From contig WTGN01000105.1 of NCBI GenBank assembly GCA_011523545.1, positions 1 through 64,000 on the forward strand: DNA of 64,000 bases, read 5' to 3'. Below, piece after piece: positions 14,738 to 16,925 of the stretch. Below the pieces are notes generated by a model. That model was given only the letters and a program-made list of their open reading frames with translations, was not told the DNA's origin and searched no databases. Made by a program: the position numbers and the translations under genes. The stretch is from Chloroflexota bacterium. GTDB taxonomy: Bacteria > Chloroflexota > Anaerolineae > Aggregatilineales > Phototrophicaceae. Every line of letters begins with the position of its first letter. The first letter of the stretch is position 1.

Positions 14738-14816
14738 TCGCCGCTGCGCAGTCAATGCTCTTGGCAGACGAGGAGGGCGATTGCCAGAAATAATATGAAA
14801 TTCTAATGTTGGCGCT
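14738..14816. repeat. 79-bp groES-upstream segment, copy A
   Basis: 76/79 identical by eye to 16847-16925. Confidence 0.93.
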
Positions 14817-14833
14817 CGGGCGGCGGGTGCGTG

Positions 14834-16678
14834 CTAGGGATCAACTATCTCAATCGAATCGACACGGAAATATCTGGCTAGACATTTCATTGCAAGCCTC
14901 CTGCTATTAGGCCCGCTGACATCCCAAAATTCGTTCGCCATATGATAACTGAGGGGCCAGATCTGTATGTGTCTCTGTCCATCATCCCGCTGGTCGACGA
15001 TATATTGATGACGCTCATCCCATTCAGTGGCAAAGGTCTTCAGCCTCGGCAGCCAACGAATCTGGGCGGCAGCTATATTGAGGGCGATGACCAGGGCGAT
15101 GAGCAGCGGCACAATCTTGAACAGCTTGAATATCGGCGATCGCGATGCATTCTGGCACGGTGTGCATTTCAGGGATATTCCCAGCAGTCCGCCCCATGTT
15201 AAACCGGCGGCAACTTGAAAATAGATCACTGGAACAATGTAGCGGCTTGACACATAACCCAAGCTGTAGAAGGAAATAAGCGTCAGGATTAGCGCCGACA
15301 GGATCGCCGCGACGAAAAAGGCTGCAATTATCAATGCCCAGCGCAATGCCAGCTTTTGCGAAATGCTCTGCGCCAGCTGGCTGGAGACATTTGCGATTAG
15401 ACACAGGCTGCTAACGTATAAAAATCCCTCGGCTTTGTAATGGGTGTCGATGAATTGTGTTGTCAAGAAAAATGCGAAGGCGAGGAGCAAAATAAGCCCC
15501 GAAAAAGATACAAGGCGATATCCCGCGTCGAGTGATAGCTCGGAGGTCTTGCGCCGGAGCCATAGCAGCGCGAGATACCCAAGTATCAACGCCAGATTCA
15601 GGCCGATGACCGACATGTATGGCAAGCTGTAGCGCTCCAGGACTTGTGCGTCGTTGCTGGTATGCGTCCATAGATAGGGCAGGAAACAGAGTTGAACCGC
15701 CAAACCAAGGGCCAACGGAAGCTGGCTAATGCGAAACCGCTTCAATTCGCTGTTCTTACATCTGCCCGCATTCAGCCATTGCGCCGAAAGCAAGCCGACC
15801 GCAAAAAGCAAAACAAAAGCGGAAAATGCGTCGTGATCAATGAGATACAGTCGGGCGCGATGGAAGCTCACGTCAATCAATTGGGGCAAGGCCCGCACTG
15901 GATCAATCAATTCGACAGTGTCATCAAGTCTAATACCTACCCCCGGCGCGCTCAGCATAGTGGCCGCGCTTGCCATCGTGCCAGCCAGCCCGGCGATGAG
16001 CATGAGGGAAGCTGGGCGGCGGCACGGATGCTGCGCCAGAAGATATGTCAAGCAGAGCAGAATCAGCAGCATCAGCCCTTGTTCGACCAAGTACATCTCG
16101 GATAAGCCAGCAACCATGAAGCAGAACACCGCGCTTGCGACCGCGGCCGTAGCGCAACGGCGGCGCGAATTCAGCCGTTTTGACAGGCTTAGGGCTGTGG
16201 ATGCAAAAATGGTAAACAAGACCAGAGGCAAGAAGTAACGCACATTTGCGGAATACCAGTAGAACACTTCCAAATTGTAGAAAGCGTGAATTGCGCCGGC
16301 GACCATCAGCCCAGCGGCGATGATGGCGATCGCCCAGCGCCCCTGCCGCAAGCGAAAGTAAGCAAGCGCTTGCCATATCAGCCAAGCTAATGCGCCTAGC
16401 CAGATAAAAAGGGAGACAAGTGGAAGTACTTGAACGATTTTCCAGTCCAATGGGCCGAACAATCCGTGCAGGAAATAATCGCCATAAGCGCCGTTCCATG
16501 CCTCGCGCTGAGCACGCATGTTGTCCCATGGGCCGTGGTCACGCCCCAACTGAATGTGGCATCCATCGTCCTTGAACATACGGCTGAATTGCCCACTGTA
16601 GGCAAATAGCAGCGAGGGAATAAGCGCCAGCGCCACCAGCGAAGTCTTAATTGCAGATATGGCAGTTAGTCTAAGCAA
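14834..16678 (-). CDS. Multi-pass membrane protein, paralog P4
   Basis: KDDGCHI after TM1; MLSAPGVGIR; EWDERHQYI near C-terminus. Confidence 0.82.
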   Translation of the reverse strand: MLRLTAISAIKTSLVALALIPSLLFAYSGQFSRMFKDDGCHIQLGRDHGPWDNMRAQREAWNGAYGDYFLHGLFGPLDWKIVQVLPLVSLFIWLGALAWLIWQALAYFRLRQGRWAIAIIAAGLMVAGAIHAFYNLEVFYWYSANVRYFLPLVLFTIFASTALSLSKRLNSRRRCATAAVASAVFCFMVAGLSEMYLVEQGLMLLILLCLTYLLAQHPCRRPASLMLIAGLAGTMASAATMLSAPGVGIRLDDTVELIDPVRALPQLIDVSFHRARLYLIDHDAFSAFVLLFAVGLLSAQWLNAGRCKNSELKRFRISQLPLALGLAVQLCFLPYLWTHTSNDAQVLERYSLPYMSVIGLNLALILGYLALLWLRRKTSELSLDAGYRLVSFSGLILLLAFAFFLTTQFIDTHYKAEGFLYVSSLCLIANVSSQLAQSISQKLALRWALIIAAFFVAAILSALILTLISFYSLGYVSSRYIVPVIYFQVAAGLTWGGLLGISLKCTPCQNASRSPIFKLFKIVPLLIALVIALNIAAAQIRWLPRLKTFATEWDERHQYIVDQRDDGQRHIQIWPLSYHMANEFWDVSGPNSRRLAMKCLARYFRVDSIEIVDP

Positions 16679-16722
16679 GATGATTCAATTCATTCACGAT
16701 GATGTCTAATCGGCTACTCTAA

Positions 16723-16846
16723 TGGACTCCAGACCGTAATAGTAGGGCTGGCAATGCCAACCCACAATTTCCAGATCGACCAGCAAAATCGCCTATGTCA
16801 TGCGATAGCTGTATGGCGTTACGGTGATACTTCGCTCGCAGTCCGC
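16723..16846 (-). pseudogene. Truncated 3' end of a P6-like gene
   Basis: About 91% identical by eye to the last ~40 codons of P6 (18840-18963); contains an in-frame stop and no 5' part. Confidence 0.88.
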
Positions 16847-16925
16847 TCGCCGCTGCCCAGTCAATGCTCTTGGCAGACGAGAAGGGCGATTGCCAGAAAC
16901 AATATGAAATTCTAATGTTGGCGCT
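16847..16925. repeat. 79-bp groES-upstream segment, copy B
   Basis: 76/79 identical to 14738-14816; joined directly to the P6 fragment. Confidence 0.93.

What the first reader, a model, noticed from the sequence alone, without database searches (positions are those of the whole stretch)
14738..16925. Flanks far better conserved than cargo: hint of cassette exchange or strong diversification
The 79-bp copies match at 76/79 positions and the P6 3' fragment matches P6 at ~91%, yet the genes between them (P4 vs P5) look only ~45-50% identical as proteins. On the clpC side, tail copy 2 is ~94% identical to the clpC end while P1 and P2 look only ~50-60% identical. If the whole units duplicated once and then drifted, non-coding or dead flanks should diverge at least as much as genes. 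So either cargo genes were replaced by recombination between conserved flanks, or flanks are homogenised or functional, or cargo is under diversifying selection. This is the best candidate here for an undescribed system.
Basis: partly seen in the sequence, partly recalled or inferred. Interest (0 to 1): 0.82.

Follow-up and report, generated by a model that had tools for sequence, protein, structure and literature searches.

The report
Swappable membrane-gene slots beside chaperone genes
In an uncultivated Chloroflexota genus, the edges of two chaperone genes (clpC and groES) act as fixed borders between which very different versions of one membrane-protein gene are swapped and sometimes stacked, so the borders look young while the genes between them are ancient.

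Summary
Confirmed and largely explained. The 79-bp copies match at 76/79 and the P6 fragment at about 91%, while P4 and P5 share only 47% of residues. P4/P5 synonymous divergence is 1.57, against 0.22 for clpC between this genome and its sister species. The flank copies arose after that split; the P4/P5 divergence predates it. So the genes are not products of the duplication that made their flanks. Synonymous changes switch from rare to saturated inside the genes' 5' ends, marking recombination breakpoints. Across about 30 related species the slot behind clpC holds nothing, other genes, or one of several DUF6056-like families, with no detectable fit to the species tree. In one relative (G015) a duplicated clpC tail of the host's own type switches at the clpC stop codon to a leader and cargo gene of another species' type. 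Best reading: homologous recombination between conserved housekeeping borders exchanges cargo, and occasional illegitimate joining stacks alleles in tandem. This resembles Rhs-tip and T6SS effector-immunity arrays, but the borders are clpC and groESL and the cargo are probable membrane glycosyltransferases. Simple duplication, positive selection alone and a dispersed repeat are rejected or unlikely. The donor strain and the proteins' function are not shown.

The parts
2728..5226 (+). clpC, left border of the clpC-side slot; its last 125 nt (5102-5226) are the source of the tail copies
   Evidence: ORF and 99% aa ClpC in sister G011; tail hits
5234..7102 (+). P1, DUF6056-like polytopic membrane protein (cargo, family F1)
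7135..7259 (+). T2, clpC tail copy, 80% to clpC end
7222..9138 (+). P2, cargo; likely true start near 7267 (MMAHSQ...)
   Evidence: same start in database protein P0017
9171..9295 (+). T3, clpC tail copy, 94% to clpC end
9258..11183 (+). P3, cargo; likely true start near 9303
11216..11338 (+). T4, clpC tail copy, 86%, followed by a different UTR and terminator-like hairpin instead of a P gene
12618..14264 (-). groEL, right border of the clpC-side slot
14325..14627 (-). groES
14689..14713 (-). CIRCE-like operator TGGCACTC-N9-GAGTGCCA of groESL
   Evidence: read; conserved in relatives
14727..14755 (-). groESL promoter TTGACT-17-TAGATT
14738..14816 (-). 79-bp copy a: upstream half of the native groESL promoter (-35 plus upstream TGGCA..TGCCA repeat)
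14834..16678 (-). P4, DUF6056-like cargo gene; foreign/older block about 14817-16727
16727..16846 (-). P6' fragment: 3' part of P6, about 91% to P6
16846..16847 (.). illegitimate junction P6' / groES-promoter copy, little or no microhomology
16847..16925 (-). 79-bp copy b, cut off from its -10 and CIRCE
16950..18812 (-). P5, cargo; positional counterpart of the first cargo gene in sister G011
18822..20468 (-). P6, cargo
20517..22001 (-). P7, cargo
22009..25206 (-). Transglycosylase-domain penicillin-binding-type protein, far border of the groES-side slot
   Evidence: PF00912

Best explanation
The regions clpC-to-groEL and groES-to-PBP are two allele slots. Their borders (3' end of clpC, 3' flank of groEL, upstream half of the groESL promoter, a neighbouring P gene) are conserved, and homologous recombination with DNA from relatives swaps the DUF6056-like cargo between them. 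Breakpoints fall in the borders or the first tens of codons of the cargo. Now and then an incoming fragment recombines homologously on one side only and is joined illegitimately on the other (or enters as a circle carrying border plus cargo). The new allele is then added rather than exchanged, leaving a duplicated border fragment between two cargo genes. In this genome that produced clpC-P1-T2-P2-T3-P3-T4 and groES-79bp-P4-P6'|79bp-P5-P6-P7. P4 and P5 are alternative alleles of one slot that became neighbours. Shown: flanks younger than cargo, breakpoints inside genes, a shared junction for all three tail copies, patchy slot content, a switch at the clpC stop codon in G015. Inferred: the route of uptake, the illegitimate-joining step, and that the cargo are GT-C-type glycosyltransferases modifying surface glycans.
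For: Cargo dS 1.57 (P4/P5) and 0.96-1.23 (P1-P3) against clpC dS 0.22 to sister G011. Flank copies are nearer each other than to G011: 79 bp 3/79 against 9-10/79; P6' 10/120 against 15-21/120. In the cargo tree P4 branches outside G019/G000-P5/G011-P5, and P1-P3 show no supported grouping to the exclusion of clpC-slot genes of G005, G017 and G025. Synonymous change-points inside P2/P3 and P4/P5 5' ends. One shared P|T junction for T2-T4. Sister G011 lacks P1-P4 and every extra flank copy. Slot families need 14 changes on 30 species, shuffled mean 15.5. G025/G012 and G028/G026: homology stops at the clpC end and resumes beside groEL with 89-93% flanks. G015 tail copy: 92% own clpC upstream of the stop, then G002/G026-type leader downstream; its F3 cargo dS to G002 is 0.46 (0.39-0.54), below clpC 0.82 (0.67-0.97). 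P4 orthologues at 95% and 85% exist elsewhere. The genome has ComEC and DprA families.
Against: No donor or sister strain with P4 in place of P5 could be read; the 85% P4 orthologue is known only as a protein. T2 (80%) and T4 (86%) are not especially conserved, so the contrast on the clpC side is weaker. Only one genome per species was available. ComEC and DprA families are widespread and do not prove competence. Fold search found no solved relative, so the function of the cargo is inferred.
Confidence: 0.77

Rival explanations
1. Old tandem paralogues with flanks kept alike by gene conversion: P1-P7 are ancient neighbours, and short conversions repeatedly homogenise the 79-bp and clpC-tail copies while the genes are too different to convert.
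For: Flanks are short and similar; in the last 35 nt T1, T2 and T3 differ at only 2 sites per pair while T2 differs far more further upstream, which looks like local conversion or recombination.
Against: Both 79-bp copies have private changes; T2 and T4 are not homogenised; G011 has one 79-bp copy and none of P1-P4; it does not explain the swapped slots of sister species or the switch in G015.
Confidence: 0.13
2. Single tandem duplication followed by rapid divergence of cargo under diversifying selection.
For: Unit layout looks like tandem duplication; protein divergence is high; cargo dN/dS (about 0.3-0.4) is higher than for clpC.
Against: Cargo synonymous divergence is saturated while flanks differ by 4-9%; P4 falls outside P5 of G000 and G011; whole-gene dN/dS stays below 1.
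Confidence: 0.04
3. A dedicated cassette system: clpC tail and groE promoter fragments are recognised attachment sites used by a recombinase to insert P units.
For: The same tail-P unit occurs three times in a row and the last P is also followed by a tail; G015 and G026 have similar border copies.
Against: Border copies differ in length and position (125 nt in G000, 332 nt in G015); no recombinase was recognised in the locus and there is no tRNA gene in the window; the two slots share no common site; breakpoints lie inside genes at variable codons.
Confidence: 0.04
4. Assembly artefact of a metagenome-assembled genome merging strains at a repetitive locus.
For: Several relatives' contigs end near this locus, and P1 and P4 clusters sit on short contigs in the protein collection while P2 and P5 share contigs up to 273 kb.
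Against: The pattern recurs independently in G015 and G026 with other breakpoints; clean swaps are seen in colinear contigs of other species; tail copies have drifted, so they are not duplicated reads.
Confidence: 0.02

Closest known systems
Rhs C-terminal tip displacement (Jackson et al. 2009, PMC2935791)
   Same: A conserved gene part serves as homology; variable cargo is exchanged; duplicated fragments of the conserved part of variable length precede displaced cargo in tandem; recombination with circular intermediates was proposed there.
   Different: Here the anchor is a housekeeping gene end (clpC or groES promoter), not the cargo's own core; added cargo stays as full-length genes; no toxin.
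T6SS effector-immunity arrays of Vibrio cholerae (Kirchberger et al. 2017, PMC5361080)
   Same: Alleles at one slot are replaced by homologous recombination and sometimes added, proposed to use homology-facilitated illegitimate recombination; co-resident alleles do not cluster by genome.
   Different: No toxin-immunity logic; cargo are membrane proteins; the border is duplicated.
Capsule and surface-polysaccharide loci exchanged between conserved flanking genes
   Same: Conserved border genes, non-orthologous surface-related cargo exchanged by recombination in the flanks (general knowledge; not tested here).
   Different: Cargo are single DUF6056-like genes, stacked as alleles rather than whole biosynthetic clusters.
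DUF6056 (PF19528) and GT-C glycosyltransferases
   Same: Weak Pfam match (up to 43 bits, cut-off 27); an Asp-Asp pair at the start of a short helix after TM1 and two short helices between TM1 and TM2 in a pLDDT 90.6 model, as described for GT-C enzymes such as PimE (PMC12041525).
   Different: No significant fold match in the PDB; activity unknown; most members score below the Pfam cut-off.

Membership tests
DUF6056 (PF19528) | Score above Pfam gathering cut-off | tested here: inconclusive
   P4 43.3 bits passes; P3, P5, P6, P7 20-26 bits below 27; P1 and P2 no match; 15 of 39 homologues match
GT-C glycosyltransferase superfamily | Polytopic membrane fold with acidic residue at a juxtamembrane helix in the first outer loop | tested here: inconclusive
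   Model: helix 2-37, D43 D44 (D43 invariant, D44 nearly so), short helices 44-53 and 56-66, then helix 72-113; no significant PDB fold match
GT-C glycosyltransferase superfamily | Sugar transfer from a lipid-linked donor | not testable with these tools
   needs biochemistry
Rhs/T6SS-style displacement arrays | Alleles in one genome do not cluster together but with alleles of other genomes | tested here: met
   cargo tree: P4 outside G019/P5 clade; P1-P3 not a supported clade apart from G005, G017, G025; G015 F2 and F3
Rhs/T6SS-style displacement arrays | Duplicated fragment of the conserved anchor left between cargo genes | tested here: met
   T2-T4 and 79-bp copy b in G000; 332-nt tail in G015; 73-nt promoter copy in G026
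Rhs/T6SS-style displacement arrays | Cargo is a toxin tip or effector with immunity gene | tested here: not met
   no PADLOC, PHROGs or toxin-family match; polytopic membrane proteins
Integron or site-specific cassette array | Recombinase and fixed recombination site | tested here: not met
   no recombinase recognised among the ORFs and genes examined in the locus (not every small ORF was searched); border copies of different length and breakpoints
Simple tandem duplication | Flank and cargo synonymous divergence equal | tested here: not met
   dS 1.57 against 0.04-0.09 in flanks

The most novel reading that the evidence does not exclude
The clpC and groESL borders are standing docking sites for a genus-wide, continually exchanged repertoire of surface-modifying membrane enzymes, a defence- or immunity-driven variation system in which chaperone genes are the anchor and alleles are deliberately stockpiled in tandem.
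Probability: 0.15. Interest if true: 0.75.

Novelty: new variant of a known kind. Interest (0 to 1): 0.52.

Why it matters
It shows how two of the most conserved loci in a bacterium can act as recombination borders for fast-exchanged surface genes, and it gives a readable fossil record of both exchange and stacking: border fragments, breakpoints at a stop codon and in 5' coding ends. It marks DUF6056-like proteins as strongly exchanged genes in an uncultivated Chloroflexota genus, which points to phage or host recognition as the driver and makes that testable by population genomics.

Tried and rejected
Dispersed repeat: rejected, 2 and 4 copies only, all at this locus. RNA element: no Rfam match. 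Single duplication plus drift: rejected by dS and tree. T copies donated by another species: rejected for G000 and for G015's tail copy, which cluster with their own or sister clpC. Defence-family (PADLOC) and phage-family (PHROGs) matches: none. PDB fold relatives: none significant; the weak pentameric-channel sequence hits were judged spurious. Two genome-collection scans for P4 and its 85% orthologue found no locus. A first sliding-window alignment was wrong because the two stretches overlapped; it was redone.

Full report
What is there. Two chaperone loci carry tandem genes of one family: clpC-P1-P2-P3 on the + strand and, on the - strand, PBP-P7-P6-P5-P4-groES-groEL. P1-P7 are polytopic membrane proteins related to DUF6056. 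The 79-bp copies are the upstream half of the groESL promoter: copy a carries the -35 (TTGACT-17-TAGATT) just upstream of a CIRCE-like operator; copy b (16847-16925) has lost the -10 and the operator and abuts a fragment of the P6 3' end. On the clpC side three 125-nt copies of the clpC 3' end follow P1, P2 and P3. Neither sequence occurs elsewhere in the genome.

Observation tested. The other two tails are 80% and 86%. The sliding window shows identity falling from over 90% at the borders to 40-65% inside the genes. The same contrast holds at synonymous sites: dS is 1.57 (1.29-1.99) for P4/P5 and 0.96-1.23 for P1-P3, while clpC and groEL differ from the sister species G011 by only 0.22 and 0.20. 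The duplicated flanks are closer to each other than to G011 (79 bp: 3 against 9-10 differences; P6': 10 against 15-21), so they duplicated after that split. P4 branches outside the P5 genes of G000, G011 and G019. The cargo difference is therefore older than the duplication of its flanks.

Breakpoints. Among codons with identical residues, P2 and P3 differ synonymously at 5 of 44 sites before codon column 63 and at 131 of 250 after it; P4 and P5 at 2 of 18 before column 38 and 144 of 253 after (Fisher p 1.6e-7 and 1.4e-4; none of 200 permutations as extreme). P1 against P2 or P3 shows no significant change-point. On the other side of P4, similarity to P6 starts abruptly at about 16727; the last codons of the P6 fragment differ from P6 although G011 and G000 agree there. 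P4 thus seems to have arrived with the end of a P6-type gene, as expected if it occupied the same slot in its donor. The three P|T junctions on the clpC side are the same joint, so one illegitimate joint was made and then propagated; the array ends in a tail (T4) followed by a different UTR with a terminator-like hairpin.

Relatives. Thirty-three same-genus genomes and a few from the family were compared. Sister G011 has clpC, no P gene, then groEL, groES, P5, P6, P7, PBP. Elsewhere the clpC-groEL slot is empty, holds unrelated genes, or holds family F1, F2, F3 or single divergent types. Mapping the families on a clpC+groEL tree takes 14 changes; shuffled labels need 15.5 on average (17% of shuffles need no more than 14). 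G025/G012 and G028/G026 are colinear at 89-93% up to the clpC end and again from beside groEL, with different content between. G015 has clpC-F2-tail-F3: the 332-nt tail is 92% identical to its own clpC and 80% to G002 or G026, yet directly after the stop codon the sequence becomes G002/G026-like (69-72%) and unlike its own clpC downstream. The F3 gene itself has dS 0.46 to G002 while clpC has 0.82, with non-overlapping intervals, so it moved between lineages. G026 has a copy of the groES promoter element between two P genes. The opposite sign also occurs: P5 and P6 between G000 and G011 have dS 0.49 and 0.66, above the clpC value.

How it works. The simplest account is repeated homologous recombination in conserved borders, which exchanges cargo, plus rarer events with one homologous and one illegitimate end (or a circle carrying border and cargo), which add cargo and leave a border fragment. 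[quoted passage not shown] coli conjugation (PMC3240628, abstract) and was proposed for T6SS effector-immunity arrays (PMC5361080); circular intermediates were proposed for Rhs tips (PMC2935791). This genome has ComEC and DprA families, which are common and only permit, not prove, DNA uptake. Duplication followed by exchange of one copy gives the same final map and cannot be told apart here from direct addition of an allele.

What the cargo may do. A model of P5 (pLDDT 90.6, 39 sequences) has an Asp-Asp pair (D43 invariant, D44 nearly invariant) at the start of a short helix after TM1 and two short helices before TM2, like the loop carrying the catalytic aspartate in GT-C enzymes such as PimE (PMC12041525). 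The same slot in G016 holds two PMT_2-type proteins, one above and one below the Pfam cut-off. The only significant fold match is a protein of Oenococcus phage phiS13 (E 4e-7). PDB gave none. A surface-glycan glycosyltransferase exchanged under phage or host pressure is a reasonable inference, not a result.

Limits. Only one genome per species; all synonymous estimates are Nei-Gojobori values and those above 1 are near saturation; trees are FastTree. Cluster statistics in the protein collection put P2 and P5 on shared contigs up to 273 kb and P1 and P4 on short ones, which could mean strain variation or assembly breaks and was not resolved. The 95% and 85% P4 orthologues (P0001, P0002) could not be placed in context.

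Noticed in passing
window 12147-12172 and 12560-12585: The groEL terminator hairpin (about 39 nt, 85% identical) is present twice, flanking an 81-aa ORF (12244-12489); similar paired hairpins are in G011. Possibly a third border duplication, on the groEL side of the slot.
   Followed up: partly
window 11415-12110: A 231-aa minus-strand ORF (X) with no Pfam match lies between T4 and groEL; weakly similar ORFs sit in the same slot of several relatives (G001, G012, G013, G016, G018, G020, G021, G032).
   Followed up: partly
L084:2744-6730 (minus strand): G012 carries a 1328-aa coiled-coil (Fez1/Rod_CreS-like) protein in the clpC-groEL slot instead of a P gene, so the slot accepts unrelated cargo.
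   Followed up: no
L081:10631-13723: G016 has two PMT_2-type (GT-C) genes between groES and the P genes; related species G008, G009, G020, G021, G031 and G032 have two ORFs of similar size in the same place.
   Followed up: partly
L071, clpC-oriented 9409-9480: G026 carries a 73-nt, 85% copy of its own groES upstream element between two P genes, with nearly the same left edge as the copy in the window.
   Followed up: partly
window 27226-27465: Cluster of short GC-rich palindromic repeats (GGGCGAC..GTCGCCC), REP-like, intergenic.
   Followed up: no
L115 (G000:C76) and L116 (G011:C63): A further P homologue lies at another locus; several relatives (G005, G006, G015, G023, G024) have related genes away from clpC/groESL, forming their own clade in the tree.
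   Followed up: partly
window 1711-2475: Stand-alone Clp_N domain protein just upstream of clpC.
   Followed up: no
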